From Tepidiphilus sp. J10 (GTDB lineage Bacteria; Pseudomonadota; Gammaproteobacteria; Burkholderiales; Thiobacillaceae), in NCBI GenBank assembly GCA_945897955.1, contig CAMDGQ010000012.1, positions 1-63,894 of the forward strand: a stretch of 63,894 nucleotides of DNA. The letters run 5' to 3'. Below the pieces are notes generated by a model, which saw nothing but the letters and a program-made list of their open reading frames with translations, ran no database searches and was not told where the DNA came from. Position 1 is the first letter of the stretch. Each line of letters opens with the position of its first letter. The position numbers and the translations under genes were made by a program. Below are positions 49,522 through 63,894 of this stretch, in pieces.

Positions 49522-50322
49522 TTACCTTGATTCCGCCGCCTGTTCAAGCTGATGAGCGTTGCGACTGATTCCTTGGCGACCAATCCCGTCGCGGTCAATG
49601 CCTGCATCGGCGAGTTGAGCGCGCACAAGCGTGCCCTCACCTACCTCAGCCGACTGTTCCTGGCGCGCATAGCTGACAACATCTTTCCACATGCCAGCCT
49701 GTAATCGCTCAACAACTGTCTTCATGGCTTTAACCTGATCCATCGCCGCGCTTACTTCGTCATTACTGGCGGATTCGGCATCAAGCGTGAGGATATCCCA
49801 CATCGGCTCCTTGATCAGACTTGCAGCCGCAGTGTTGCCGGACTCGCCACCTTCGACAGTCTTGGGATCCTTCTCAACTCCAAACAGTTTTCCCAACGCA
49901 TCAAGCGACTCCGGCGGCGGAAAAGTCAGCGCATCAATTTGCCTGCGCAAACCGCCAAAGCTGTTCAAAAGCGAAATTCGTTCAGGATTGTCGATCGGGT
50001 ATGGTGGATACATCTTGACCACCGCACCCAGATCTTCTTCCATGGCACTGAGCAATTGCTCCGCTTTTTCGGCTGTAACGACAACTTCCCGGACCAATGA
50101 TGCTGCCTTGTTGAGCACCTCCTGCTGACCTCGTATCTGTGCAAACGCAACTGCGACTTGAGACGTGGAAGCCGATTCCTTGCCACCAGGCAGATCAAGA
50201 ACAGATGCACCACGCACCGTATCCGACTGACTCGTCGGGCGCGATGCCTGCACAGTAACGGGCGCGTTCGGTTGAGCCAACACCGAGTGACCAAGAGCAG
50301 GCCCTGAAATTCCAGTGACCAT
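49522..50322 (-). CDS. Unrecognised 266-residue protein in the flagellin locus
   Basis: I do not recognise a named family. The ATG at 50322 has GGAGG six bases upstream; a GTG two codons earlier would overlap that site, so I reject it. The protein has no signal peptide or membrane segment. A Ser/Thr-rich N-terminus is followed by helices (about 55-105) and the striking motif MYPPYPIDNPERISLLNSFGGLRRQIDALTFPPPE. It lies between flagellin and flbT in the same orientation, 20 nt before flbT, so a role in flagellin handling is inferred from place only. Confidence 0.75.
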   Translation of the reverse strand: MVTGISGPALGHSVLAQPNAPVTVQASRPTSQSDTVRGASVLDLPGGKESASTSQVAVAFAQIRGQQEVLNKAASLVREVVVTAEKAEQLLSAMEEDLGAVVKMYPPYPIDNPERISLLNSFGGLRRQIDALTFPPPESLDALGKLFGVEKDPKTVEGGESGNTAAASLIKEPMWDILTLDAESASNDEVSAAMDQVKAMKTVVERLQAGMWKDVVSYARQEQSAEVGEGTLVRAQLADAGIDRDGIGRQGISRNAHQLEQAAESR

Positions 50323-50334
50323 TTTCACCCTCCC

Positions 50335-50386: not shown

Positions 50387-51292
50387 TTAGAACAGTCTCA
50401 GGATCGACTGTTCAGCCTGCGAGGAAATGCTCAGGGCGGTAGTTCCCAATTGCTGCTTGGTCTGCAACGAAAGCAGGTTGGCACCTTCTTCGTTGGTATC
50501 AGCCTCGGTAAGCCTGGTCGAACCGACAATCAGGTTGTTCACCATTTCACCGATGAAAGTCTGCCTCGTCGTCAGGGTGCTCAGGTTGGCCGACAACTCT
50601 GAAGCCCGAGTCTGCAAAGTCGCAATGGCCGCATTCAGACTCGCCTCAACCAGATCCAGATTAGGCGCGTCATCAAGATCGGCATAAGCAATATTGCCGC
50701 TTGTTCCGGCTACATCAAGCACAGCGCCGCCACCGGAAATACCCAGACCGCTGGCGCCGGCATTGAAACCGGACATGACGATTTCTGTCGTGGCATTCTC
50801 ATTGAAGTTAACTGTCAAGGTCACACTACCGCTGGTCAGGAAGTTGGTTCCCTTGTAGCTTGCGTCAGTCACCAGATTGTTCAGTTGCTCAACCAGGCGG
50901 TTGTACTGCCCAACCAGGCCGGAAGCGCCTGCGCCGGTATTGTCGCCACCCAGTGTCACAGAACTGTTCACCGTATCGTTGATGGCCGAACGAGCTTGCG
51001 TTACCACGCCACGAATCGCTTCAATGGTGGTCAATACACCCTTGATACCCGAATCGGCAGCCTTGACAGTCTGAATTGCCTCACTGATGTTGTCCTTAAG
51101 GCCAGTAAGCAAACCTGCGCGTGAAGTATGGCCTTGTGCCGCAAAGAAGTTGGCGGGGTTGTCAACTGCGGTGTTTACTCGCTTGCCGGTAGCAAGTCGT
51201 TCCTCGGTTTGTCCCAACAGCCGTGCAGTGGTCTGCAAGCTGATCAGATTGGAACGCATTGAAGAGGTCAGGCCGATTTCGCCGATTGCCAT
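50387..51292 (-). CDS. Flagellin, alphaproteobacterial type
   Basis: Flagellar filament subunit of 301 residues. The N-terminal D0/D1 region (GLTSSMRSNLISLQTTARLLGQTEERLATGKRVNTAVDNPANFFAA) and C-terminal D1/D0 region (LTEADTNEEGANLLSLQTKQQLGTTALSISSQAEQSILRLF) are intact; only a short Gly-rich D2 lies between them. The SILRLF end and the ATGKRVNTAVDNPANFF segment resemble Alphaproteobacteria rather than typical betaproteobacterial flagellins. AAAAGGAG precedes the ATG. A sigma-28 promoter with a hairpin-containing leader lies upstream. Confidence 0.93.
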   Translation of the reverse strand: MAIGEIGLTSSMRSNLISLQTTARLLGQTEERLATGKRVNTAVDNPANFFAAQGHTSRAGLLTGLKDNISEAIQTVKAADSGIKGVLTTIEAIRGVVTQARSAINDTVNSSVTLGGDNTGAGASGLVGQYNRLVEQLNNLVTDASYKGTNFLTSGSVTLTVNFNENATTEIVMSGFNAGASGLGISGGGAVLDVAGTSGNIAYADLDDAPNLDLVEASLNAAIATLQTRASELSANLSTLTTRQTFIGEMVNNLIVGSTRLTEADTNEEGANLLSLQTKQQLGTTALSISSQAEQSILRLF

Positions 51293-51479: not shown

Positions 51480-52820
51480 TCATTCTTCCCGGAGTGCGCC
51501 TGACATGCGCTCGATTATCGGCTTCAGCAGATAGTTCAAAAGAGTTCTTTCCCCGGTAGTTACCAGAACCTCAACTTCCATCCCGGGTTTGACATCGAGT
51601 CCGGCACGTTCAAGCCCGCTCAGCAAAGCCTGATCCGGCTTGATAACTGCCTGGAAGTACGGAAGCCGAGTGTGTTCGTCAATGATCTGGTCGGCTGAAA
51701 CCGTATCCACCTTGCCGGTCAGAACGGGCGTATTTGTCCGCTGCAACGAGGAAAACCGGACAGATACCGGCAAACCCGGTTTCAGGCGATCCGCCGCCAT
51801 GGTCGGGAATCTGGACTTGATCAACCAGGTTGACTGCATCGGGACGATGTCCATCAAACGCTGGCCAGCCTGAACTACGCCACCTATCGTGTGCAGCGCC
51901 AGATCCATGGCTTGCCCGCTTGCCGGCGAACGAACATTTGCGCTTTCCACCTCGAATTCCAGCGCCTTGATGCGTTCTGCCAGGGTCGATACTTCGTCGC
52001 TCACACTGCCAAGCTGGGATTCGACCTCACTCCGGAAAGTCTGCACCAACTGAAGCGTCTTCAACTGGCTTTCATTCATGGCCTGCTCCGTACGGCCAAT
52101 GTTGGTGATGGCAGTAGCCAGATCAACACTGAGCTCGCCCATATCTCGCTCGACTTCATGAATGCGATTCATGGAAATGAAACCCTTGCTTACCAGAGCG
52201 CGAAAACTTTCCAGTTCCTTTTCCTGAGCGGCAAGGCGAGCTTCCTGGTGGCGCTTGATCTCCTTGAAACCAACCAACTGACCTTGCAGTGACGCAAGTT
52301 CGTGTTCAATGATGCGCCGCTTGATTTCGAGCTCCCTGCGGCGAGTCTCAAACAATCTTGTTTGCAATTCGACTGTTGAGCCCACACGCGGATCGCCAGA
52401 ACGATCCAGCAAATCACCAGGCCAGACGATCCTGCCCTGATTTGAACGTTCCGCGTTCAGGCGAGCCTCCAGGCAGCGGGCGCTGATCCATTGACCTACG
52501 GCTGCTTCAAGCTGTGCCTGCGCCTGCACAGTATTCAGGCGTACCAATGTCTGGCCACGAGCGACCTGATCACCATCCTTGACCAGAATCGCATCCACAG
52601 CGCCCCCAACCAGCGTCTGAACCGTCTTCTTCTCGCCGCTGACCACGACCGTACCGGTGCCGGCCATACCTTGATCAAGTGGCGCAAACCCGGCCCAAAG
52701 CATGAATCCGCCAAACCCGATCGCCAAAACCCACAAACCCAGCCGCGCCATGGCGGCGGCATCCGAATCGAGAGCCAGGCGATCGGCTTCGGAGCCGGTC
52801 AGATGCGGGTCAAACTTCAT
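51480..52820 (-). CDS. Type I secretion membrane fusion protein (HlyD/PrtE family)
   Basis: Periplasmic adaptor linking an ABC exporter to an outer-membrane TolC-like pore. The 446-residue protein has one N-terminal transmembrane helix (about 29-46, GLWVLAIGFGGFMLWAGF) and a barrel-sandwich/lipoyl half (GTGTVVVSGEKKTVQTLVGGAVDAILVKDGDQV). Long coiled-coil hairpins (about 105-290) follow, then the C-terminal signature GMEVEVLVTTGERTLLNYLLKPI. It starts 9 nt after the ABC gene. No TolC homologue is in the window. Confidence 0.92.
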   Translation of the reverse strand: MKFDPHLTGSEADRLALDSDAAAMARLGLWVLAIGFGGFMLWAGFAPLDQGMAGTGTVVVSGEKKTVQTLVGGAVDAILVKDGDQVARGQTLVRLNTVQAQAQLEAAVGQWISARCLEARLNAERSNQGRIVWPGDLLDRSGDPRVGSTVELQTRLFETRRRELEIKRRIIEHELASLQGQLVGFKEIKRHQEARLAAQEKELESFRALVSKGFISMNRIHEVERDMGELSVDLATAITNIGRTEQAMNESQLKTLQLVQTFRSEVESQLGSVSDEVSTLAERIKALEFEVESANVRSPASGQAMDLALHTIGGVVQAGQRLMDIVPMQSTWLIKSRFPTMAADRLKPGLPVSVRFSSLQRTNTPVLTGKVDTVSADQIIDEHTRLPYFQAVIKPDQALLSGLERAGLDVKPGMEVEVLVTTGERTLLNYLLKPIIERMSGALREE

Positions 52821-52829
52821 GATTACGAG

Positions 52830-54557
52830 TCAATCCCCTGAATCAGACCGGGTTGAGGAACCGGCCACAACGGGAGCGGAAGCAGTCAATGCCTTCAACA
52901 CCTGATCTTTTGAGCCATAGAGATGCTGCATGCCATCCTTGAGCAGGAGCATCTTGTCGACAACAGCCAATACGTTGGAGCGATGCGTAACCAGGACAAC
53001 GGTCGAACCGGCATCCTTGAGAGACCTGATTGCCGCAAGCAAGGCCAGTTCTCCGGCTTCGTCAAGATTCGAGTTGGGCTCATCCAGAGCGACAACAGCA
53101 GGCAATCCGTAAAGCGCGCGGGCCAGTCCGATACGCTGCTTCTGACCGCCCGACAGCTTGAATGCGCCGGCACCAAGAACGGTTTCATAGCCTTGCGGGA
53201 AATGCAGCACCATCTCGTGAATGCCGGACATCCGCGCAGCCTCGATCACCTTGACCGAATCCACTTCGCCAAAGCGGGCGATATTCTCGGCGACTGAACC
53301 ATCAAGCAATTCCACATCCTGGGGCAAGTAACCCAGTGATGGCCCCAAATCCCCGCGCGACCATTGAGCGATATCGGCCTCATCGAATCTCACCGAACCG
53401 TGCGCGGGGGGCCAGATACCCACCATTGCCCGCACCAGAGAAGACTTTCCGGATGCACTCGGACCGACGATGGCAATTGCCTCGCCCTTGTTCAAGGAGA
53501 TATTCACGCCATTGACCGCCGGTTTCCTGGCGCCGGGCGGCACCACGATCAGGTTTTCCAGCCGGATAACGCCGGTTGGCGGGGGCAACGCCATGCGATG
53601 TGTTTGCGCCGGATAAGTCGCAAGCAACTCGTTCAGTCTCCGATAACTGTTCTTCGCTCCATCGAGTTGCTTCCACGACCCGATAGCCAGTTCAACCGGC
53701 GCCATGGCACGACCCAACAGAATGGATACAGCAATCATGGCTCCAGCCGATATTTCGTTTTCCAGCACCAGATATGCGCCCAAAGCGAGTGACAGAGACT
53801 GCCAACTGATTCTGATGAAACGAGTCGCTCCGGCAATCCCCAGGCTGCGCCTGCTGGCCATGGCCTGGGCTGCCAGCACTCGATGCTGCAGGCCTGCCCA
53901 CTTGCTGCGCAGGACATCGAGCATACCGAGTGCATGAATCACCTCGGCATGCTGCAAGGAACTGTTGATATATGAAGCGCTGGAAATTGAAAGCTGATTG
54001 GCTTCAGCCATGTAGCCGCGGGTAGCGAATTCGTTCCAGATTGCCAGCATCACCAGAATTACCGAACCGACCAGGGCAAAGACGCCCAGCCAGAAGTGGA
54101 ACAGAAAGCAGGCTGCCAGATAGATCGGCAACCAAGGCGCATCGAAGAAGGCAATCAATCCTTGTCCGGTAATGAATTGCCTCAGTGTCGACAAATCGCT
54201 CAACACTTGAGACGGGTTGGCGGAACGTTCGCGCAGATTGCGTTCAAAGGCAGCAGTAAAAACCCTTTCGCCCAGACGATTGTCAATTCCCGCGCTCATC
54301 CTGACCATCACCTGGCCCCGTATCCACTCAAGTGTGCCGCTCAACATGAACAAGCCCAGGATGATCAGGCTCAGCATTACCAGCGTAGTCTCGTTCCGGC
54401 TGGTCAAGACGCGATCGAAGACCTGCATCATGTAGATCGAAGGCGCCAGCATCAGGAGATTGATCACTCCGCTGAACAACGCCAGGCTCACGAATATCTG
54501 CCGGTAACCCAGCAGGGCGGCATCAAGTTCACGAACAGGATCAAGGGCAAGCTTCAT
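52830..54557 (-). CDS. Type I secretion ABC transporter (PrtD/permease-ATPase)
   Basis: Exporter of 575 residues. The transmembrane half has about six helices (FVSLALFSGVINLLMLAPSIYMMQVFDRVLTSRNETTL at the start) and the ATPase half has Walker A GPSASGKSSL, signature KLSGGQKQR, Walker B VVALDEPNSNLD and the switch THRS. There is no N-terminal C39 peptidase, so cargo would not be a double-glycine peptide but a larger protein with a C-terminal signal. I start at the ATG at 54557; the frame extends 37 codons into the divergent promoter region without similarity. It faces away from the giant repeat gene across 185 nt. Confidence 0.93.
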   Translation of the reverse strand: MKLALDPVRELDAALLGYRQIFVSLALFSGVINLLMLAPSIYMMQVFDRVLTSRNETTLVMLSLIILGLFMLSGTLEWIRGQVMVRMSAGIDNRLGERVFTAAFERNLRERSANPSQVLSDLSTLRQFITGQGLIAFFDAPWLPIYLAACFLFHFWLGVFALVGSVILVMLAIWNEFATRGYMAEANQLSISSASYINSSLQHAEVIHALGMLDVLRSKWAGLQHRVLAAQAMASRRSLGIAGATRFIRISWQSLSLALGAYLVLENEISAGAMIAVSILLGRAMAPVELAIGSWKQLDGAKNSYRRLNELLATYPAQTHRMALPPPTGVIRLENLIVVPPGARKPAVNGVNISLNKGEAIAIVGPSASGKSSLVRAMVGIWPPAHGSVRFDEADIAQWSRGDLGPSLGYLPQDVELLDGSVAENIARFGEVDSVKVIEAARMSGIHEMVLHFPQGYETVLGAGAFKLSGGQKQRIGLARALYGLPAVVALDEPNSNLDEAGELALLAAIRSLKDAGSTVVLVTHRSNVLAVVDKMLLLKDGMQHLYGSKDQVLKALTASAPVVAGSSTRSDSGD

Positions 54558-54626
54558 GTGCGCACCATTCTTCAGGCCCGCCACAACCCGACATGCTGCA
54601 TAGCAATATTCATGTTTCTCTAGGAC

Positions 54627-54654
54627 TAAAGTTTTCCGGTGCATTTGCCGATAG
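54627..54654 (+). promoter_or_regulatory. Sigma-28 (FliA) promoter of the giant repeat gene
   Basis: TAAAGTTT (54627-54634), a perfect -35 match, is followed after 12 nt by GCCGATAG (54647-54654), a 7/8 match to GCCGATAA. The usual spacing is 11 nt, so it is one longer. Transcription would start near 54661, giving a leader of about 82 nt. This would place the downstream gene in the flagellar late regulon. Confidence 0.78.
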
Positions 54655-54742
54655 GGTTTCCGCAGCAAATGTCGGCGGAATTACGGCAGAGATTTCAGTA
54701 GTCACCGCATCAATCGTTTGAATAGTGTTTCTGGAGATTAGC

Positions 54743-57700
54743 ATGAGCAGCTTTATTACTGGCCTTACCACAGCGCAGATAGCTGCTCTGGCCACCAATC
54801 AGATCGCGTCGCTGACCACTGAAGACATCGCCGCGTTCACGGCGACCCAGATTGCCGCGCTGACTACTGCTCAAGTGCCTGTGCTGACCACGGAAAGCAT
54901 AGCGGCATTCTCCACTGCGCAGATTCCGGCATTTACCAGTGCACAGATTGTCGCCTTCACCGGCGGCCAGATTGCCGCCATCGAGACAGTCGATCTGGCG
55001 CTGATGACCACCGCGCAGATACAGTCGATTGCCAGCGACGACATCGCCTCGCTCACCACCGCTCAAGTTGTCGCTTTGACTACCGCGCAGACCGCCGCGT
55101 TGACCTCGACGCAAATCGCAAACATGACAACGGCGCAAATCGCGGCAATGGAAACCGCCGATCTGTCGAAATTGAATACCACGGCATTGCAGGGATTGAC
55201 CACGGCCCAGATCGCGGCATTGACCACTGCGCAAGCGGCTGCCTTGACCCTGACGCAACTCTCGAAACTCAGTAACAGCCAGATCGCCGCCTTCGAAACC
55301 GCAGATATTGCCAACCTGTCCACAGCGGCCATCACCGGCCTGACTACGGCACAGATCGCCGCACTGACCACTGCACAAGCGGCTGCGCTGACATCCACCC
55401 AGATCGCCGGTCTGAACATCACCCAGATTGCCGCATTCGAAACGGCAGACCTCGCCGCCCTCACCACGACCGCATTGCAGGGCCTCACCACGGCGCAAAT
55501 CGTGGCGCTGACCACAGGGCAAGTCGCAGCGCTGACCACCGGGCAGATTGCCGCCATTGGCACCGCCCAGATCGCAGCTCTGGCGACTGACGACATCCCG
55601 GTGCTGACCACCGCTCAGATCGCCGCGTTGACCACTGCACAAGCAGGTGTACTGAAATCGACTCAGGTTGCAAAGCTGACCACGGCGCAGATTGCAGCAA
55701 TGGAAAGCGCCGATGTGGCCAAGCTTTCCACAGCCGCACTGACCGGTTTGACGACTGGTCAGGTCGTCGCCTTGACTACCGAACAGGCAGGTGCGCTCAC
55801 CTCTGCGCAGCTTGCTGCCCTCAGCGCGGCCCAGATCGCCGCGCTGGAAACAGCGGATATCAGCAATCTGTCCACTACTGCATTGCCTGGCCTCACCAGC
55901 GCCCAGATAGTGGCGCTGACCACAGCTCAGGCCGCCGCACTGACCACCAGCCAGATTGCCGCACTTACTTCCGCGCAAATCGCCGCGTTCGCGACAGACG
56001 ACATCGCCGCGCTAAGCACGGCACAGATCGCTGCACTGACCACCGCGCAGGCGGCGGCACTGACATTGACCCAGATTTCGAAACTGACAACGGCGCAAAT
56101 CGCGGCCATGGAGACAGCCGATATCGCCAAGCTCTCCAGCACTGCCTTGCCCGGCTTGACAACCGCTCAGATTGTCGCGCTGACCACAGCACAAGCTGCT
56201 GCGCTGACCTCGTCGCAACTCGCCAGTCTGACCCCGGCCCAGGTCGCTGTTCTGGAGACTGCCGATCTAGCCAGTCTCTCCACTACCGCGTTGCCCGGCT
56301 TGACCACAGCAGGCATCGTCGCGCTCACCACCGGCCAGGTTGCCGCGCTCACCACAGCGCAGGTCGCCGCGCTCACATCGACCCAGATCGCCGCCCTTGC
56401 AACGGATGACATTCCGGCGTTGACCACGGCGCAGATCGCCGCCCTGACCACCGCCCAGGCTGGAGCGTTGACTGCGACCCAGATCGCCAGGTTGACCACA
56501 GCTCAGATCGCCGCCATGGAGACGGCCGATGTCGCCAAACTGACCACCGCAGCCCTGCAAGGCCTGACCACCGCGCAAGTTGTGGCCCTGACCACTGCTC
56601 AAGCTGCCGCGCTCACTACTGATCAGTTCAGCAAACTGACTGCCGCGCAAATCGCCGCCCTCGCCACCGATGACATCGCGGCGCTGACCACCGCCCAGGT
56701 CGCTGCGCTAACTACCAGTCAAGCGGCCGCGTTGACCTCGGCGCAAATCAACAACATGACCACGGCGCAGATCGCCGCCATGGAAACGGCCGATGTCGCC
56801 AAACTGACCACCGCCGCACTGCAAGGGCTGACTACCGCGCAGGTCGTCGCGCTGACCACCGCCCAGGCGAGCGCGTTGACACAGGTTCAGGTCGCAGGCT
56901 TGACCACGACCCAGGTCGCCGCACTCCAGACAGCGGATATCGCCAGCCTTTCAACCGCCGCAGTACCTGGTCTGACCACGGCCCAGATCGTCGCGTTGAG
57001 CACCGGGCAAGCAGCCGCATTGACCACCACGCAGTTTGAAAAACTGACTGCAGCCCAGATTGCCGCGCTGGCGACAGACGACATCGCCGCGCTGACCACC
57101 GCCCAGATCGCCGCGCTGACCACCGCGCAAGCAGCCGCATTGACCTCTGCGCAAATCGCCAACATGACCACGGCGCAGATCGCCGCGATTGAAACCGCCG
57201 ATTTCGCCAGGCTTTCCACCACCGCGCTGCAGGGACTGACCACGGCCCAGGCGGTCGCGATGACCACCGCTCAGGCGGGTGCGCTGACTTCAGCCCAGAT
57301 ATCCAAACTGACTACCGCCCAGATTGCCGCGCTGGAAACCGCCGACGTTGCCAAGATATCCACTGCTGCACTGCCCAGCCTGACCAGCGCCCAGATCGTG
57401 GCGCTGACCACAGCGCAGGCTGCCGCCCTGACCACCGAACAGTTCAGCAAACTGACCCCTGCCCAGATCGCCGCCCTGGCGACGGATGACATCGCTGCGC
57501 TGACCACCGCCCAGATTGCCGCGCTCACCACGGCGCAGACAACCGCCCTCACTTCCGCTCAGCTTGCCAAAATGACCACGGCGCAGATCGCCGCCATGGA
57601 AACTGCGGATGTCGCAAAACTCACCGTTACGGCGCTGCCCGGACTTACCACCGCGCAGGCCGCCGCGCTGACCACGGCGCAGGCGGCAGCATTGACGTCC

Positions 57701-60700
57701 GCCCAGATCGCCGCACTGAGTACTGCCCAGATTGCGGCCATGGAAACCGCCGATATCGCCAAACTCTCCACGGCAGCGTTGCAAGGCTTGAGCGCGGCTC
57801 AAATTGCCGCCCTGACCACGGCCCAGGTCGCCAACCTGACCGTCGCACAAATTGCCGCCCTGAAGGCCGCGCAGGTCGCTGCGCTGGCTACCGACGACAT
57901 CCCGGTCCTGTCCACCGCACAGATCGCCGCGTTGACCACTGCCCAGGTCGGCTCCTTGTCGTCGGCTCAGCTTGGCCAGATGACCACCGCGCAGATCGCC
58001 GCCATGGAAAGCGCCGATGTTGCCGGGCTGGCTTCTTCCGCAATCCCGGGCCTGACTACCGGACAGATTGTCGCGCTGACCACCGCACAGGCGGGCGCGC
58101 TGAATTCGGCGCAAGTCTCAAGGATGACAACGGCGCAGATCGCCGCCCTGGAAACCGCCGACATCACAAATCTGACCACCGCCGCATTGCAAGGGTTGAC
58201 CGCTGCCCAGGTCGCGGCATTGACTACCGGCCAGGTTGCAGCGCTGACGACGGCACAGATCGCTGCGCTCAAGGGCGCCCAGATTGCTGCGTTGGCGACG
58301 GATGATATCGCCGTGCTCAGTACCGGGCAGATCGCCGCATTGACCACGACCCAGGCCGCGTCCTTGACCCTGGCGCAGCTATCCAATATGACCACGGCGC
58401 AGATCGCCGCGATGGAAACCGCCGACATCGGCAAACTAGCCGCCGGCGCCATGCCCGGACTGACGACCGCGCAGATTGTCGCGCTGACCACCGCACAGGC
58501 AGGGGCACTGACTTCAGCCCAGATCGCCACACTGACCACGACACAGATTGCCGCACTTGAAACAGCCGATATTGCCAAGCTGACCACCGCCGCATTGCAA
58601 GGCCTCAGCGCAACCCAGGTCGCCGCTCTCACCACGGGCCAGGTCGCCGCATTGACCACCGCCCAGATCGCCGGCTTGAAAGCCACCCAGATCGCGGCGC
58701 TCGCCACTGACGACATCCCGGTTCTGGGCACTGCCCAGATTGCGGCATTGACTACCGCCCAGGCCGCCGCATTGACGCTGGCTCAAGTCAGCAAGATGAC
58801 CACGGCACAGATCGCTGCGATGGAAACCGCAGATATCGCCAAGATTGTCGCCGCAGCCATACCCGGCCTGACCACTGGCCAGATCGCGGCATTGACTACC
58901 GCCCAGGCTGGCGCATTGGTTTCCGCCCAGATCGCGAGCATGACGACCGCCCAACTCGTCGCCATGGAGACTGCGGATGTCGCAAAACTATCGACAGCCG
59001 CAATACCCGGACTGAGCACAGCGCAAATTGTGGCGCTGACTACGGCTCAAGTCGCCGCACTGACTTCGGATCAGATTGCGGCAATGTCGACCGCGCAGAT
59101 AAGGGCGATGGAAACAGTCGACATGGCCGCACTTGGCGCCTCCCAGGTCGGCGCCTTCACCTATGCCCAGTTGGCCGCGCTGACCACCGCGCAAGTCAAC
59201 GCATTGACCTCGCCGCTCAGCGCGACACAGATCGAAATCCGCGATATGGCCCTCCTGACCCCGGCCGCAATTGCTGCGTTGACCACGGCGCAGATCGCGG
59301 CACTGACTACTACACAGGCCTCCGCGCTGCTGCCGACCCAGATTGCGGCGATGTCAACCAGCCAGATTCGGGCGATTGAAACAGTCGATCTCGCCCAGCT
59401 CACAACAGCCGCGATTGTCGGCCTGACCACCGCGCAGGTTCCTGCGCTCACCACCGATCAGATCGGCGCACTGACCACCGCACAGGTGCGCGCAATGCAA
59501 ACCGCCGACATCGTCGCGTTGACGCCAACCCAGGTTGGCGCAATGAGTACCGCCCAGTTTGCTGCGCTCAGCGTCGATCAGATCGCCAGACTGGAAACCG
59601 CCGACATTCAGGCGTTGAGCACCGCGCACATCGTCGCCCTGCGCACAGCGCAGGCTGCTGCATTGACCTCCAGTCAGGTCGCCGCGATGACCACCGCACA
59701 AATCGCCAAGCTGGAAACCGCCGATCTGGTCAATCTATCCACCGCAGTCATACCCAGTTTGTCCGCTTCCCAGATCAAGGCGCTGACCACTGCACAAGCC
59801 GCCGCACTGACCACAGCACAGGTCAGCAAACTGACCACCGCGCAGATTGCGGCTTTGGATACCGAAGACATTGCCAGTCTGTCCACCGCTGCAATTGCCA
59901 GTCTGACAAGCGCACAGATCGGCGCATTGACAACCCGGCAGGCTCCGGCCCTGACCACGGCCCAGATTGCCGCCTTGACCAGCAGCCAGATCGCATCATT
60001 CCAGACCGAGGATATTGCGCGTCTGACCACCGCCCAGATCGAAGCATTGACCACGGCGCAAACACCAGCACTGACCACGGCGCAAATAGCCGCGTTGAGC
60101 CTCGACCAGACCATCGCGCTGGAAACGCAGGATTTCGCCAGAATTTCAACGGCTTCGATTGCAGCCCTGAACACTGCCCAGGTTGCGTCCCTGTCCACCC
60201 AGCAGATTGCTGCACTGACCACGGCCCAGATCAAGGCGATCGAAACTGCCGACCTGATTGTTCTCAGCGAAGAACAACTCCATGCAATTACCACCGCCCA
60301 GGTTGCCGCATTGACCACCAATCAGGTAGTGGCACTGACTACCGATCAGATTGCCAGCCTTGAAACAGTCGACATCGCTGCACTGACCCCCTTCCAGATA
60401 AGCAAGCTGACCACCGCCCAGATTGTTGCGCTGACCACCGAGCAGGTTGCCGCATTGACGCCAGCCCAGGCCGCCGCCCTGACTACAGCCCAGATCATCG
60501 CGCTTGAGGTTGATGATCTCGCCAATCTTTCCACCTCCGCCATCGCCGCGCTGACCACGGCCCAGATACTCGCGCTGACCACCGAGCAGATTCCCGCCTT
60601 GACCAGCGCACAGATCGCCGCGCTGACCACGCCTCAGATCACCATCATGCAGACCGCCGATCTGGTCGAGTTGACGCTCGACCAGATCGATGCCTTGACA

Positions 60701-63700
60701 ACCACTCAGGTTGCCGCGCTGACCACATTCCAGATCAGTCGATTGACCACGGCGCAGATCAACGCCCTGACTACTGGCGATGTCGCCGCTCTTTCCACCG
60801 CTCAGGTTGTCGCGCTCGGCACAGAACAGATCCCGGCCCTGGATATCGAAGATATCGCCGCCCTTTCAACGGCGCAGATCATCGCCATTCAAACTGCCGA
60901 CATGCGTGCGCTGACCACCGCACAGATTGATGCACTGACCACGACCCAGGCTGCCGCGCTGACCAGTGCGCAGGTCGTCGCGCTGACCACTGAACAGATT
61001 GCCTCCCTGGCAACCGAAGATCTGGCCGCGCTGGCAACCTCCATCGTCAACAAACTGACTACCGCCCAGATCGCAGCTCTGACCAGCGACCAGATCATCG
61101 CCCTGTCCAGCGCGCAGATCGCGGCCCTCACCAGTGCCCAGGCGCTTGCATTGACCAGCGCCCAAATCGCGGCTATCGAACTGACCGACCTGGGGGCCCT
61201 TTCCACGGCCACCATCGCCAACCTGACCACTGCGCAAATCGTTGCGTTGAGCACTGAACAGATTGAAGCGCTCTCCAGCGGACAAATTGCCGCATTGACC
61301 ACGGCGCAACTCGCCGCGTTGACCACCGCGCAGATCCCGGCCATAGAAACCGCCGATCTCGCCGCCCTGTCGACCGCCAAGATACCGGTACTGACCACTG
61401 CGCAGGTAGCAGCACTGACCACGGATCAGATCGTGGCGCTGAGTGCGCCGCAAATTTCGGCGCTGGAGAGCGCCGATGTCGCCGCACTGACCACCGAACA
61501 GATCAGCGCGATGGCTGCCAGCCAGATCGAGTCCCTCAGTACCACCCAGTTCGCGGCACTGGCTACCAACCAGATCGGCGCCATACCTCTGGACGGTATA
61601 GCCGCCCTGAACACCAATGTGATCGCGAGCATGAGTACCGCGCAATTTGCTGCGCTCAGCACTGACCAGGTCATTGCGTTGACACCGGACCAGGTCGCCG
61701 TCATCTCCTCTATCCAGCTTGCGGCCCTGAGCACCACGCAAATGGCTGCACTGGACGCCGGCGACATGGAATCGCTCTCCACCAGCGCGATCGCAGCGTT
61801 GACCACAGCCCAGGCCGCCACGCTGACCACAGCGCAGATCGCCGCCCTGACGCCCACCCAGATTGCAGTGCTTGAAACCGCCGATCTCGCGGCCATGAGT
61901 ACCGCACAGATCGCCGCCCTGACCACCGACCAGATGCCGTCAATGACCAGTACACAGGTCGCTGCGCTCTCCACTGCGCAGTTGGTGGCGATCGAAACTG
62001 CCGACTTTGCTGCGTTGAGCACTACGGCCATCGCAAATCTCACCAGCGGTCAGGCCGCCGCGCTGACCACGGCGCAAATCGCCGCGCTGACGCCGCTGCA
62101 AGCTGGCGCCCTCGGCACAACCCAGAGCAATGCGTTCAGTACCGCGCAGATTCGCGCCATTGAAACAACCGACATTCCCGCCTTGAACACTTCGGTTGTG
62201 CAGAATCTGACAACGACCCAGATCGCCGCATTGAGTGGAGTACAGGTAAGCGCGCTGATCACGGCGCAAGCGGCAGCCCTGACCTCTGCGCAGATCGCCG
62301 CGATGAATACCGCGCAATTTATCTCGCTTGAAACCAATGACATCGCCAAACTTTCAACCAGCGCAATCGAAGGCATAACGACTGGTCAGATCGTATCGCT
62401 GTTGCAGGGGCAGGCTGCCGCCCTGACCGCAAACCAGGTCGCGGCAATGAGCACCGCGCAGATCGCCGCGATGGAAACTCGCGACTTCGCCCGACTGTCG
62501 GCCAATGCCGTCAAGGCACTGACTACCGAGCACATAGGCGCCCTCTCGACCGGTCAGATCGCCGCACTAACCACCAGCCAGGTACTTGCGCTCGAAACGG
62601 CCGACATCGCGGCGCTGTCCACCGCGCAGACTGCGGCGTTGACAACCGCACAGATCGCCGCCTTGAGCACCTCTCAGGTCGTCGCCATCGAAACTGCCGA
62701 CATCGCAGCGCTTACCACCGCCCAGGTGGCGGCTTTGACCACCTGGCAGGTCAGCAAACTGACCACCGCTCAGATCGCCGCACTGGAAACCGCCGACATT
62801 GCCGCCATGACCACGGCGCAGATCGCCAAATTGACCACGGCGCAGATCGCAGCCATCGAAACAGCGGATATCGCCGCGCTGACCACCGCGCAAGTCGCCG
62901 CATTGACGACTCAGCAATTGCTCGCATTGACCACGGCACAGATCGCTGCGCTGGAAACGGCCGACGTCGCCGCGCTGACCACCGCTCAGGTTGCGGCCCT
63001 CTCCACTGCGCAATTGACCGCTATCGAAACCGCAGATATAGCGGCATTGACCACCGCGCAGGTTGCTGCGTTGACCACCTGGCAGATCAGCAAACTGACC
63101 ACCGCTCAGATCGCCGCACTGGAATCGGCTGACGTCGCAGCGCTGACCACCGCTCAAGTCACCAAGCTAACCACGGCACAGATCGCCGCGATTGAAACGG
63201 CCGACATCGCCGCACTGACCACGGCACAGGTTGCCGCGATCACCACGACCCAGATCAGCAGCCTGACTACCGCGCAAATCGCGGCCATGGAAACTGCGGA
63301 CATCGCAGCGCTGACGACTGCGCAAATTCCGAAATTGACTACCGCGCAGATCGCCGCTCTGACTACCGCGCAGATTCCGGCCTTGTCCACCGCCCAGATC
63401 GCCGCCCTGACCAGCACCCAGATTGCTGCCATGGAGCCGGCCGATGTCGCCGCGCTGAGCACCGAACAGGTCGCTGTGCTGACTTCTGGCGCCTTGGTCA
63501 GCAAATTGACTGGGGCTCAGATCGCCTCGTTGACCACAACTCAAATTGCCTCGATCGCGACCGCCGATCTGATTACCCTGACCACGGCCCAGATCGCCGC
63601 ATTGACCACCGCTCAGACGCCTGCCTTGACGACCGCGCAGATCGCCGCACTGACCACGGCACAGATCGTGGCCATGGAAACTGCCGATTTTGCGGCATTG

Positions 63701-63894
63701 ACTACCGCTCAGATCGCCGCGTTGACCACTGCGCAAAGCAGCAAACTGACCACCGCGCAGATCGCCGCGCTCACCTCTGCCCAGCTCGCCGCGATTGAAA
63801 CCGCAGATATCGCGGCGCTCACGACAGCACAAGTGGTTGCACTCGGCACTGCTCAGATCGACAAGCTGACCGGCTTGCAGATCGCCGCAATGAC
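54743..63894 (+). CDS. Giant octapeptide-repeat protein, partial at the right edge
   Basis: An open frame starts at the ATG at 54743 (GGAG six bases upstream) and shows no stop through every row I translated, running off the window after about 3,050 codons (over 300 kDa seen). Only MSSFITG precedes the first repeat, so there is no Sec signal peptide. The rest is a tandem octad with consensus TTAQIAAL: Thr/Ser-rich at 1-2, Gln/Asp/Glu at 4, Ile/Val/Ala at 5, Leu/Met at 8. Acidic variants such as ETADIAKL and ATDDIPVL recur at fixed spacing. The fold is unknown; Thr-x-x-Gln resembles a helix capping box, so stacked short helices or a solenoid are both possible. Divergence from a type I exporter and a sigma-28 promoter suggest a secreted, motility-linked surface protein. 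The C-terminal signal, if any, lies outside the window. Confidence 0.9.
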   Translation, partial: MSSFITGLTTAQIAALATNQIASLTTEDIAAFTATQIAALTTAQVPVLTTESIAAFSTAQIPAFTSAQIVAFTGGQIAAIETVDLALMTTAQIQSIASDDIASLTTAQVVALTTAQTAALTSTQIANMTTAQIAAMETADLSKLNTTALQGLTTAQIAALTTAQAAALTLTQLSKLSNSQIAAFETADIANLSTAAITGLTTAQIAALTTAQAAALTSTQIAGLNITQIAAFETADLAALTTTALQGLTTAQIVALTTGQVAALTTGQIAAIGTAQIAALATDDIPVLTTAQIAALTTAQAGVLKSTQVAKLTTAQIAAMESADVAKLSTAALTGLTTGQVVALTTEQAGALTSAQLAALSAAQIAALETADISNLSTTALPGLTSAQIVALTTAQAAALTTSQIAALTSAQIAAFATDDIAALSTAQIAALTTAQAAALTLTQISKLTTAQIAAMETADIAKLSSTALPGLTTAQIVALTTAQAAALTSSQLASLTPAQVAVLETADLASLSTTALPGLTTAGIVALTTGQVAALTTAQVAALTSTQIAALATDDIPALTTAQIAALTTAQAGALTATQIARLTTAQIAAMETADVAKLTTAALQGLTTAQVVALTTAQAAALTTDQFSKLTAAQIAALATDDIAALTTAQVAALTTSQAAALTSAQINNMTTAQIAAMETADVAKLTTAALQGLTTAQVVALTTAQASALTQVQVAGLTTTQVAALQTADIASLSTAAVPGLTTAQIVALSTGQAAALTTTQFEKLTAAQIAALATDDIAALTTAQIAALTTAQAAALTSAQIANMTTAQIAAIETADFARLSTTALQGLTTAQAVAMTTAQAGALTSAQISKLTTAQIAALETADVAKISTAALPSLTSAQIVALTTAQAAALTTEQFSKLTPAQIAALATDDIAALTTAQIAALTTAQTTALTSAQLAKMTTAQIAAMETADVAKLTVTALPGLTTAQAAALTTAQAAALTSAQIAALSTAQIAAMETADIAKLSTAALQGLSAAQIAALTTAQVANLTVAQIAALKAAQVAALATDDIPVLSTAQIAALTTAQVGSLSSAQLGQMTTAQIAAMESADVAGLASSAIPGLTTGQIVALTTAQAGALNSAQVSRMTTAQIAALETADITNLTTAALQGLTAAQVAALTTGQVAALTTAQIAALKGAQIAALATDDIAVLSTGQIAALTTTQAASLTLAQLSNMTTAQIAAMETADIGKLAAGAMPGLTTAQIVALTTAQAGALTSAQIATLTTTQIAALETADIAKLTTAALQGLSATQVAALTTGQVAALTTAQIAGLKATQIAALATDDIPVLGTAQIAALTTAQAAALTLAQVSKMTTAQIAAMETADIAKIVAAAIPGLTTGQIAALTTAQAGALVSAQIASMTTAQLVAMETADVAKLSTAAIPGLSTAQIVALTTAQVAALTSDQIAAMSTAQIRAMETVDMAALGASQVGAFTYAQLAALTTAQVNALTSPLSATQIEIRDMALLTPAAIAALTTAQIAALTTTQASALLPTQIAAMSTSQIRAIETVDLAQLTTAAIVGLTTAQVPALTTDQIGALTTAQVRAMQTADIVALTPTQVGAMSTAQFAALSVDQIARLETADIQALSTAHIVALRTAQAAALTSSQVAAMTTAQIAKLETADLVNLSTAVIPSLSASQIKALTTAQAAALTTAQVSKLTTAQIAALDTEDIASLSTAAIASLTSAQIGALTTRQAPALTTAQIAALTSSQIASFQTEDIARLTTAQIEALTTAQTPALTTAQIAALSLDQTIALETQDFARISTASIAALNTAQVASLSTQQIAALTTAQIKAIETADLIVLSEEQLHAITTAQVAALTTNQVVALTTDQIASLETVDIAALTPFQISKLTTAQIVALTTEQVAALTPAQAAALTTAQIIALEVDDLANLSTSAIAALTTAQILALTTEQIPALTSAQIAALTTPQITIMQTADLVELTLDQIDALTTTQVAALTTFQISRLTTAQINALTTGDVAALSTAQVVALGTEQIPALDIEDIAALSTAQIIAIQTADMRALTTAQIDALTTTQAAALTSAQVVALTTEQIASLATEDLAALATSIVNKLTTAQIAALTSDQIIALSSAQIAALTSAQALALTSAQIAAIELTDLGALSTATIANLTTAQIVALSTEQIEALSSGQIAALTTAQLAALTTAQIPAIETADLAALSTAKIPVLTTAQVAALTTDQIVALSAPQISALESADVAALTTEQISAMAASQIESLSTTQFAALATNQIGAIPLDGIAALNTNVIASMSTAQFAALSTDQVIALTPDQVAVISSIQLAALSTTQMAALDAGDMESLSTSAIAALTTAQAATLTTAQIAALTPTQIAVLETADLAAMSTAQIAALTTDQMPSMTSTQVAALSTAQLVAIETADFAALSTTAIANLTSGQAAALTTAQIAALTPLQAGALGTTQSNAFSTAQIRAIETTDIPALNTSVVQNLTTTQIAALSGVQVSALITAQAAALTSAQIAAMNTAQFISLETNDIAKLSTSAIEGITTGQIVSLLQGQAAALTANQVAAMSTAQIAAMETRDFARLSANAVKALTTEHIGALSTGQIAALTTSQVLALETADIAALSTAQTAALTTAQIAALSTSQVVAIETADIAALTTAQVAALTTWQVSKLTTAQIAALETADIAAMTTAQIAKLTTAQIAAIETADIAALTTAQVAALTTQQLLALTTAQIAALETADVAALTTAQVAALSTAQLTAIETADIAALTTAQVAALTTWQISKLTTAQIAALESADVAALTTAQVTKLTTAQIAAIETADIAALTTAQVAAITTTQISSLTTAQIAAMETADIAALTTAQIPKLTTAQIAALTTAQIPALSTAQIAALTSTQIAAMEPADVAALSTEQVAVLTSGALVSKLTGAQIASLTTTQIASIATADLITLTTAQIAALTTAQTPALTTAQIAALTTAQIVAMETADFAALTTAQIAALTTAQSSKLTTAQIAALTSAQLAAIETADIAALTTAQVVALGTAQIDKLTGLQIAAM
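54764..63894 (+). repeat. 24-bp (8-residue) tandem repeat array
   Basis: About 380 tandem units of 24 bp encode the octad TTAQIAAL and variants across the whole visible gene. The register is nearly unbroken, with exceptions near 59200-59270 (an irregular TSPLSATQIEIRDMALL segment) and at 63482-63508 (a 9-residue unit, TSGALVSKL). Copies differ mainly at synonymous and conservative sites, so the array is old or selected at protein level rather than freshly expanded. Confidence 0.95.
55031..59110 (+). repeat. Higher-order 408-bp (17-octad) super-repeats
   Basis: The octad ATDDI(A/P)xL or ASDDIASL starts at 55031, 55583, 55991, 56399, 56663, 57071, 57479, 57887, 58295 and 58703. Spacings are 552, 408, 408, 264, 408, 408, 408, 408 and 408 bp, i.e. 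23, 17, 17, 11, 17, 17, 17, 17 and 17 octads. Every value equals 5 + 6n octads. The 6-octad block has the order TTAQIAAM, ETADxAKL, STAALPGL, TTAQIVAL, TTAQAAAL, TxxQxxxL. Block-number changes (n = 1, 2 or 3) point to unequal recombination in whole blocks. Confidence 0.92.

What the first reader, a model, noticed from the sequence alone, without database searches (positions are those of the whole stretch)
54743..63894. Giant protein built from three nested repeat levels (8, 48 and 136 residues)
Directly seen: an open frame of about 3,050 codons consisting of octads, grouped into 6-octad blocks and mostly 17-octad super-repeats whose marker octad (ATDDI) recurs at exactly 408 bp, with deviations only of whole 6-octad blocks. 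I cannot name a domain family for it. The regular placement of acidic ETAD and ATDD octads in an otherwise Thr/Gln/Ala/Leu lattice implies a long periodic fibre or solenoid.
Basis: partly seen in the sequence, partly recalled or inferred. Interest (0 to 1): 0.93.

Follow-up and report, generated by a model that had tools for sequence, protein, structure and literature searches.

The report
Giant secreted octad-helix protein with glycosyltransferase
A bacterium encodes a very large protein made almost entirely of eight-residue mini-helices, next to genes for an export machine and a sugar-attaching enzyme; the pattern suggests a long, sugar-coated surface fibre.

Summary
The 3,050-codon frame (54743 to contig end) is octads throughout, with two single-residue breaks inside. 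The 136-residue (17-octad) period marked by ATDD holds only for about the first half (7 of 8 gaps = 136, one = 88). The repeat has a name: Pfam ALTTAQ_rpt, and an octad protein, HeliScrew4, is in the PDB. AlphaFold2 gives 48 short helices over 51 octads (pLDDT 90.5). The array goes on at the start of contig C21, ends in a domain like the FrpC self-processing module but with Thr/Ser where the cleaved Asp should be, and is followed by a GT41 (OGT-like) glycosyltransferase; a type I secretion ABC/HlyD pair lies upstream. GT41 lies within 10 kb of the array in 23 of 29 loci; 27 of 28 array-linked GT41s form two supported clades. Lag-17 identity stands out in 16 of 18 array pieces. Best reading: a giant solenoid fibre, glycosylated on Thr/Ser in the cytoplasm and exported by type I secretion. 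Glycosylation, export, one gene across two contigs, and a 3.4-octad superhelical turn are inferred, not shown.

The parts
54743..63894 (+). N-terminal part (3,050 aa, open at the contig end) of the giant ALTTAQ octad-repeat protein; GGAG upstream of the ATG; octads begin at residue 8
55583..59110 (+). stretch with the 17-octad (136-residue, 408-bp) super-repeat, ATDD marks, one interval shorter by 6 octads
62543..63443 (+). stretch with alternating 3- and 4-octad spacing of ETAD octads (7-octad period); limits approximate
52830..54668 (-). type I secretion permease/ATPase (PrtD-type), divergent from the array gene
   Evidence: TIGR01842 721 bits against a cut-off of 510; Pfam ABC_tran, ABC_membrane
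51480..52820 (-). type I secretion periplasmic adaptor HlyD
   Evidence: TIGR01843 354 bits against a cut-off of 209; Pfam HlyD_3
50387..51292 (-). flagellin, found in 19 of 23 genomes of the genus; neighbour, probably not part of the system

Best explanation
A secreted giant glycoprotein system. The array gene encodes a protein of at least 5,361 aa if the two contig pieces are one gene (3,050 on C12, 2,311 on C21, middle unknown; about 540 kDa at a rough 100.5 Da per residue). Each octad (L-T-T-A-Q-I-A-A) is one short alpha-helix, with the first Thr as helix N-cap and Gln/Asp three residues on; successive octads wind into a long screw-like solenoid. The TPR-GT41 enzyme encoded about 50 bp downstream binds the unfolded chain in the cytoplasm and O-glycosylates Thr/Ser of the octads. 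The ABC/HlyD pair then exports the chain to the Ca2+-rich outside, where the C-terminal EF-hand-like module folds and the octads form a long, acidic, sugar-coated fibre on or off the cell, for attachment, matrix or shielding. Shown here: octad anatomy, helix-per-octad model, T1SS genes, GT41 gene with both aligned catalytic-region residues, recurring neighbourhood, two array-linked GT41 clades, Ca-site conservation. Inferred: single gene, glycosylation, export, fibre, surface role.
For: AF2 of three units: pLDDT 90.5, 48 helices over 51 octads. Phmmer to HeliScrew4 E 3.2e-16. T1SS models over cut-off. Octads from residue 8, so no room for a usual signal peptide. GT41 at L009:6988-8868, Glyco_transf_41 E 5.6e-74 plus TPR; nearest solved relative XcOGT E 6.5e-94; the Lys of FNNNYK and the His of SSDFCLH are kept in 28 of 28 array-linked GT41s. 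GT41 within 10 kb of the array in 23 of 29 loci; 15 of 15 named array genomes carry GT41, against 57 of 276 genomes drawn from the own class. Tree: 27 of 28 array-linked GT41s in two clades (100/99 and 100/98), the 16 unlinked ones outside; 3 label changes against 13.3 in shuffles, 0 of 500 as low. ABC+HlyD near the array in 11 of 29 loci, with TolC in two Pseudomonas plasmids. Sugar genes nearby: two methyltransferases, Polysacc_synt_2 and DegT on C21, rfbABD, gmd, UDP-glucuronate decarboxylase. C-terminal module: FrpC module, Foldseek E 7.2e-17 at 42% identity, phmmer E 1.9e-31. 1,247 Thr+Ser and no Cys in 5,150 array residues.
Against: No glycan, secretion or structure was measured. Six of 29 loci lack GT41 within 10 kb: Ideonella (about 21 kb off on a contig of the same length), Aquabacterium (its contig ends inside a second array), Desulfamplus, G121, Shinella HZN7 (7.4 kb seen upstream), Thioclava. 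In the own genus two array-bearing genomes (G007, G019; 84% complete) show no GT41, and three genomes with GT41 (G008, G010, G022) show no array. 18 of 29 loci show no ABC+HlyD pair in the fetched stretch, among them all eight rhizobial ones, whose proteins also gave no match to the Ca-module. The loci are not independent: some are near-copies (L032/L036, L030/L094, L023/L037). Foldseek found no close solved fold for the array (best mesothelin, E 4.5e-4); the five AF2 models ranged from pLDDT 90.5 to 36.7 and only 4 aligned rows were used.
Confidence: 0.6

Rival explanations
1. The array protein is a type I-secreted solenoid, but the neighbouring GT41 and sugar genes modify something else (a polysaccharide, another surface protein); array and GT41 travel together only as parts of one surface-structure island.
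For: Several loci carry other sugar genes, glycosyltransferases and methyltransferases. GT41 is missing within 10 kb of six of 29 arrays.
Against: 27 of 28 array-linked GT41s form two clades of their own, and most lie directly beside the array. Known relatives act on proteins: OGT and the GT41 enzyme HMW1C (PMC3012730, passages) and the TPR-glycosyltransferase FlmG (PMC7591256; that FlmG is GT41 is recalled, not tested).
Confidence: 0.18
2. The GT41 is a FlmG-like flagellin glycosyltransferase and lies near the array only because both sit in a flagellar locus.
For: In the window a flagellin lies 3.5 kb from the array; in Rhizobium SL86 a flagellin lies between one GT41 and the array. FlmG is a TPR-glycosyltransferase for flagellin (PMC7591256).
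Against: Flagellin is in 19 of 23 genomes of the genus, GT41 in 5 of 23. The flagellin-adjacent GT41s seen (Ideonella C17, Aquabacterium C29, SL86 upstream copy) fall outside the two array-linked clades. In the five Pseudomonas loci no frame matched the own flagellin.
Confidence: 0.07
3. Ice-binding or ice-nucleating protein: a regular Thr lattice on a solenoid that orders water. RefSeq names the C. sphaeroides 2.4.1 member 'ICE nucleation protein'.
For: Annotation of WP_011836189.1; Thr-rich strict octads.
Against: The Pfam scan lists no ice-nucleation family at E up to 1; the predicted fold is helical, while ice nucleation proteins are held to be beta-solenoids (recalled); matches in other C. 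sphaeroides plasmids are called 'heme utilization protein' or 'hypothetical protein', so the names are not evidence.
Confidence: 0.04
4. Low-complexity or assembly artefact without a folded product.
For: The array ends at a contig end; the arrays of G018, G019 and G007 also lie at contig ends.
Against: Codon-position identities 0.79/0.87/0.49 and four-fold third-position identity 0.45 against 0.35 expected from codon use; no exact repeat of 40 bp; a relative has an unbroken 5,237-codon frame in one contig.
Confidence: 0.02

Closest known systems
Pfam PF20080 ALTTAQ repeat
   Same: The octad itself; E=0 on both contig pieces.
   Different: The Pfam model has 38 positions; the 17-octad order, the GT41/T1SS neighbourhood and the C-terminal module are not part of it.
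HeliScrew4 (PDB 9ZEM)
   Same: 120-residue octad protein of the same type; E 3.2e-16, E 1.6e-20 with a profile.
   Different: Short; by its name and regular sequence a designed protein (my inference; no paper found). Folds were not compared.
FlmG, the Caulobacter flagellin O-glycosyltransferase
   Same: Soluble TPR plus glycosyltransferase enzyme acting in the cytoplasm on an exported protein, flagellin, one of which is modified on Thr (PMC7591256: abstract, passages, section 10).
   Different: Substrate is flagellin and export is flagellar; flagellin-adjacent GT41s seen here lie outside the array-linked clades.
HMW1C / HMW1 adhesin pair
   Same: GT41 enzyme that glycosylates a large exported adhesin in the cytoplasm (PMC3012730, passages).
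   Different: N-glycosylation at Asn sequons, no TPR, two-partner secretion (same source).
FrpC self-processing module (6SJW/6SJX)
   Same: C-terminal module: Foldseek E 7.2e-17 at 42% identity, phmmer E 1.9e-31; Ca loops and the Trp pair line up (sites from PMC7078468, passages).
   Different: The residue before the conserved Pro is Thr (13) or Ser (1) in 14 of 14 rows, not the scissile Asp; the module follows octads near the C-terminus.
XcOGT (PDB 2JLB)
   Same: Nearest solved relative of the neighbouring GT41, E 6.5e-94.
   Different: Nothing seen here links it to octad arrays; its own neighbourhood was not examined.

Membership tests
PF20080 ALTTAQ repeat | score over the curated cut-off | tested here: met
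   2315.6 bits against 26.4, 103 stretches; 1739.6 bits on C21
Type I secretion substrate | T1SS ABC and HlyD genes beside it | tested here: met
   TIGR01842 and TIGR01843 over cut-off
Type I secretion substrate | no N-terminal signal peptide | tested here: inconclusive
   read by eye only: octads start at residue 8; no signal-peptide program was run
Type I secretion substrate | exported by that ABC transporter | not testable with these tools
   needs deletion and secretome
RTX protein | Gly/Asp-rich nonapeptide repeats | tested here: not met
   no such family in the Pfam scans of the window frame (E up to 1), the C21 piece (E up to 0.01) or the C-terminal module (E up to 1)
GT41 (OGT-like), the neighbouring enzyme | Glyco_transf_41 domain with TPR | tested here: met
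   E 5.6e-74 plus TPR families
GT41 (OGT-like), the neighbouring enzyme | conserved Lys and His of the active site | tested here: met
   aligned to XcOGT and human OGT; Lys and His in 28 of 28 array-linked rows; a simpler motif search had missed the Lys stretch in 16 of 28. That these residues are catalytic is recalled
GT41 (OGT-like), the neighbouring enzyme | transfers sugar to Ser/Thr of the array | not testable with these tools
   needs glycoproteomics
FrpC-type self-processing module | fold and Ca-binding loops | tested here: met
   both Trp and most loop positions invariant in 14 rows, the third and fifth positions of the first, incomplete loop vary (numbering matched by hand)
FrpC-type self-processing module | scissile Asp-Pro bond | tested here: not met
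   Thr-Pro in 13 and Ser-Pro in 1 of 14 rows
Ice nucleation protein | ice-nucleation repeat family | tested here: not met
   absent from the Pfam list at E up to 1
FlmG-type flagellin glycosyltransferase | groups with flagellin-adjacent GT41s | tested here: not met
   tree; FlmG itself was not in the tree
HeliScrew4 fold | same three-dimensional fold | tested here: inconclusive
   sequence match only; the two structures were not superposed

The most novel reading that the evidence does not exclude
A new class of bacterial surface fibre: a type I-secreted, half-megadalton-or-larger screw of eight-residue helices whose threonines, many of them helix caps, are carpeted with sugar by its own GT41 clades, a bacterial counterpart of a mucin with a rigid core. 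The screw has about 3.4 octads (27 residues) per turn, so that 17 octads make 5 turns, and array growth is accepted mainly in steps that keep the superhelical phase (7, 10, 17, 24, 27, 34, 44 octads). The C-terminal module is a self-processing module that has kept its Ca2+ sites but carries Thr/Ser in place of the cleaved Asp.
Probability: 0.35. Interest if true: 0.82.

Novelty: new variant of a known kind. Interest (0 to 1): 0.66.

Why it matters
To my knowledge the substrates of most bacterial GT41 enzymes with TPR domains are not known; here gene neighbourhood points to one, in tractable organisms such as Cereibacter sphaeroides 2.4.1. The octad array is a very simple code for a very long protein, of use for protein design, and its shared 17-octad period gives a sequence-only prediction of a superhelix that one structure can test. 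Records call such genes 'ICE nucleation protein' or 'heme utilization protein', names that this analysis does not support.

Tried and rejected

Superhelix, results against: the pooled whole-octad fit peaks at 0.295 turns per octad (r 0.73; 0.72 without lags 17 and 34), but only 10 of 18 array pieces peak there (0.292-0.296); 8 of 18 peak elsewhere (0.114, 0.176-0.184, 0.408-0.417), the two own pieces among them (0.176 and 0.408). Looking at acidic octads alone, lags 5 and 22 are also favoured (pooled z 9.8 and 4.5), which a turn of 3.4 octads does not explain, and the highest mean spectral peak is at 0.408, with 0.296 second (8.2 and 7.95). A shared ancestral 17-octad unit made of 7+10 could give most of the pooled lags; C. 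sphaeroides and Niveispirillum, whose leading lags are 24, 34, 14, 10 and 20 without 17, speak for a phase rule.

Literature: ALTTAQ, HeliScrew, PF20080, LTTAQIAAL, 'GT41' with 'type I secretion', and 'O-GlcNAc transferase' with 'type I secretion', 'adhesin' and 'glycosylation' gave no papers; octapeptide-repeat solenoids gave four papers, on prion protein or protein aggregation by their titles. The library lacks most subscription journals and holds no bioRxiv preprints.

Full report
What is there. From the ATG at 54743 to the end of the contig runs a stop-free frame of 3,050 codons. My segmentation gives 380 octads of the type L-T-T-A-Q-I-A-A, with two single-residue breaks inside. At the best multiples of eight residues agree in 45-68% of places, at lags that are not multiples of eight in about 10% on average. 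ATDD marks recur at exactly 136 residues in 7 of 8 gaps, once at 88; this stretch covers about residues 280-1456. Further on other spacings lead: 7 (3+4) octads near the contig end, 5 on the next contig.

Name and fold of the repeat. Pfam has it: ALTTAQ_rpt, PF20080. The PDB holds HeliScrew4 (9ZEM), 120 residues of similar octads (E 3.2e-16). AlphaFold2 on three units, with four in-phase rows from the same protein, gives pLDDT 90.5 and 48 helices of 4-6 residues over 51 octads, the first Thr sitting before the helix as N-cap. Of the five models two reached over 88 and one only 36.7. Foldseek found no close solved fold (mesothelin E 4.5e-4).

Not an artefact. Among 21 pairs of units identity is 0.79, 0.87 and 0.49 at codon positions 1, 2 and 3, amino-acid identity is 0.72, and third positions of shared four-fold residues agree in 0.45 against 0.35 expected from codon use. 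There is no exact repeat of 40 bp. The copies are old and held by selection on the protein (inference).

The rest of the gene. In the genome (3.9 Mb, 128 contigs) all 135 listed PF20080 matches are on C12 (the window) and C21, both cut inside an array and in matching orientation (150 of 203 candidates scored). C21 begins with 2,311 more codons, ending in about 195 residues that are no octads. I infer one gene of at least 5,361 codons; overlap and synteny did not prove it. A Pseudomonas relative has an unbroken frame of 5,237 codons, also followed directly by GT41.

The C-terminal module. AlphaFold2 with 12 rows gives pLDDT 82.6, with a disordered tail. Foldseek finds the FrpC self-processing module (6SJW: E 7.2e-17, 42% identity, TM 0.50 on the model and 0.80 on the target), phmmer likewise (E 1.9e-31). 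The Ca-binding loops and the Trp pair that PMC7078468 names (passages) line up with mostly invariant columns; positions 3 and 5 of the first, incomplete loop vary (numbering matched by hand). The residue before the conserved Pro is Thr in 13 and Ser in 1 of 14 rows, where FrpC has the Asp whose bond is cut. The module should bind Ca2+ and fold outside the cell, but the Asp-anhydride chemistry described for FrpC is not to be expected. These 14 rows come from 12 of the 29 loci; the others gave no match to this module.

Neighbours. Divergent from the array lie a PrtD-type permease/ATPase and an HlyD adaptor, both over the NCBIfam cut-offs. Behind the array on C21, about 50 bp away by the longest start, lies a TPR-GT41 enzyme nearest to XcOGT among solved structures. 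Further along C21 are two methyltransferases and, 8-11 kb on, a Polysacc_synt_2 protein and a DegT aminotransferase. In the genus the best full-length matches to the own ABC are 46% identical, a partial one 53%, while a Pseudomonas plasmid has one at E 6e-260, and the own GT41 groups with Pseudomonas ones (100/99): the cassette was probably acquired as a whole (inference).

Recurrence of the neighbourhood. I examined 29 array loci: 15 of the 16 from the named genome scan (Amylibacter, 32% identical, dropped for few octads), 10 of 11 plasmid stretches chosen for variety from 56 matching records (Polaromonas dropped, fewer than 15 chained octads), and own, G018, G121 and G227. G007 and G019 were dropped as fragments; neither genome shows GT41. 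A GT41 lies within 10 kb in 23 of 29. In Ideonella it is about 21 kb off, on a contig of the same length (overlap not shown). None was found near the array in Aquabacterium, Desulfamplus, G121, Shinella HZN7 and Thioclava; flanks seen were unequal and in places under 10 kb. ABC+HlyD lie near in 11 of 29, Ideonella's about 17 kb off. 15 of 15 named genomes have GT41. In a draw from the class GT41 is in 57 of 276 genomes and PF20080 in 3 of 276, the own genome counted; all three have GT41. In the genus PF20080 is in 4 of 23, GT41 in 5 of 23, both in 2. With a few GT41 genes in genomes of 3-6 Mb, chance would put one within 10 kb of a given gene in the order of 1% of cases (my estimate). Some loci are near-copies, so 29 is not a count of independent events.

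Tree. Of 44 GT41 catalytic domains, 28 array-linked, 27 fall into two clades (18 rows, 100/99; 9 rows, 100/98); the 28th is a second copy in Rhizobium SL86 beside a flagellin, on a long branch. The 16 unlinked ones, among them others from the same genomes and two beside flagellins, lie outside. The label needs 3 changes, shuffled labels 13.3 on average, 0 of 500 as low. Pseudoroseomonas and Niveispirillum carry one enzyme of each clade side by side. The root is not known and near-copies add to the clustering. The active-site Lys and His columns are kept in 28 of 28 linked rows.

Superhelix. In 18 array pieces from 17 of the 29 loci whole-octad identity stands out (z over 3) at lags 17 (16 of 18), 34 (16), 10 (15), 27 (13), 44 (13), 7 (12) and 24 (7). 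These are near-multiples of 3.4. A fit gives 0.295 turns per octad pooled, the same without lags 17 and 34; 10 of 18 pieces peak there and 8 elsewhere, both own pieces among the latter. Acidic octads alone also favour lags 5 and 22, which do not fit. My reading: about 3.4 octads per superhelical turn, 17 octads being five turns. A shared ancestral 7+10 unit is the main alternative.

How it most likely works. A cytoplasmic GT41 modifies Thr/Ser of the unfolded chain (1,247 of 5,150 array residues are Thr or Ser, none is Cys), type I secretion exports it, Ca2+ folds the tail, and the octads form a long acidic fibre. Precedents for parts of this are HMW1C/HMW1 (PMC3012730, passages) and FlmG/flagellin (PMC7591256, abstract, passages, one section). 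What seems new, within the searches named under Tried and rejected, is the link between octad giants, T1SS and GT41 clades of their own. It is strongest in Pseudomonas, Rhodobacterales and Rhodospirillales-type loci; the rhizobial loci share array and GT41 but showed neither T1SS pair nor Ca-module, so their export route is open.

Noticed in passing
L084 (Cereibacter sphaeroides 2.4.1 plasmid pA) 5702-15996: Cassette HlyD, peptidase-ABC, GT41, octad array near rfbABD and two sulfotransferases in a laboratory strain; the array is annotated 'ICE nucleation protein', and matches in other C. sphaeroides plasmids 'heme utilization protein'.
   Followed up: partly
L028 1641-14721: Rhizobium SL86 has GT41 genes on both sides of the array; the upstream one is beside a flagellin and falls outside the array-linked clades.
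   Followed up: yes
L029, L031, L033: Ideonella, Aquabacterium and an Oxalobacteraceae strain carry two octad giants in tandem.
   Followed up: no
L087 10489-17933; L090 12653-17776: Arrays of P. asturiensis and Pseudoroseomonas are split into three and five frames, possibly decayed or misread.
   Followed up: no
L009 11172-13310: 712-aa frame beyond the GT41 on C21 without a Pfam match at E up to 0.001.
   Followed up: no
L034 9956-14230: Desulfamplus octad protein whose C-terminal tail looks RTX-like by eye; no GT41 in the fetched stretch.
   Followed up: no
L096 2262-4438: Another genus member carries a DegT aminotransferase and a Polysacc_synt_2 protein beside its FlbT/flagellin stretch, as for flagellin sugar synthesis; similar frames on C21 match at 33-37%.
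   Followed up: partly
window 49522-50328: Frame between flagellin and FlbT without a Pfam match, matched at 43-45% identity beside flagellin in three other genus members.
   Followed up: no
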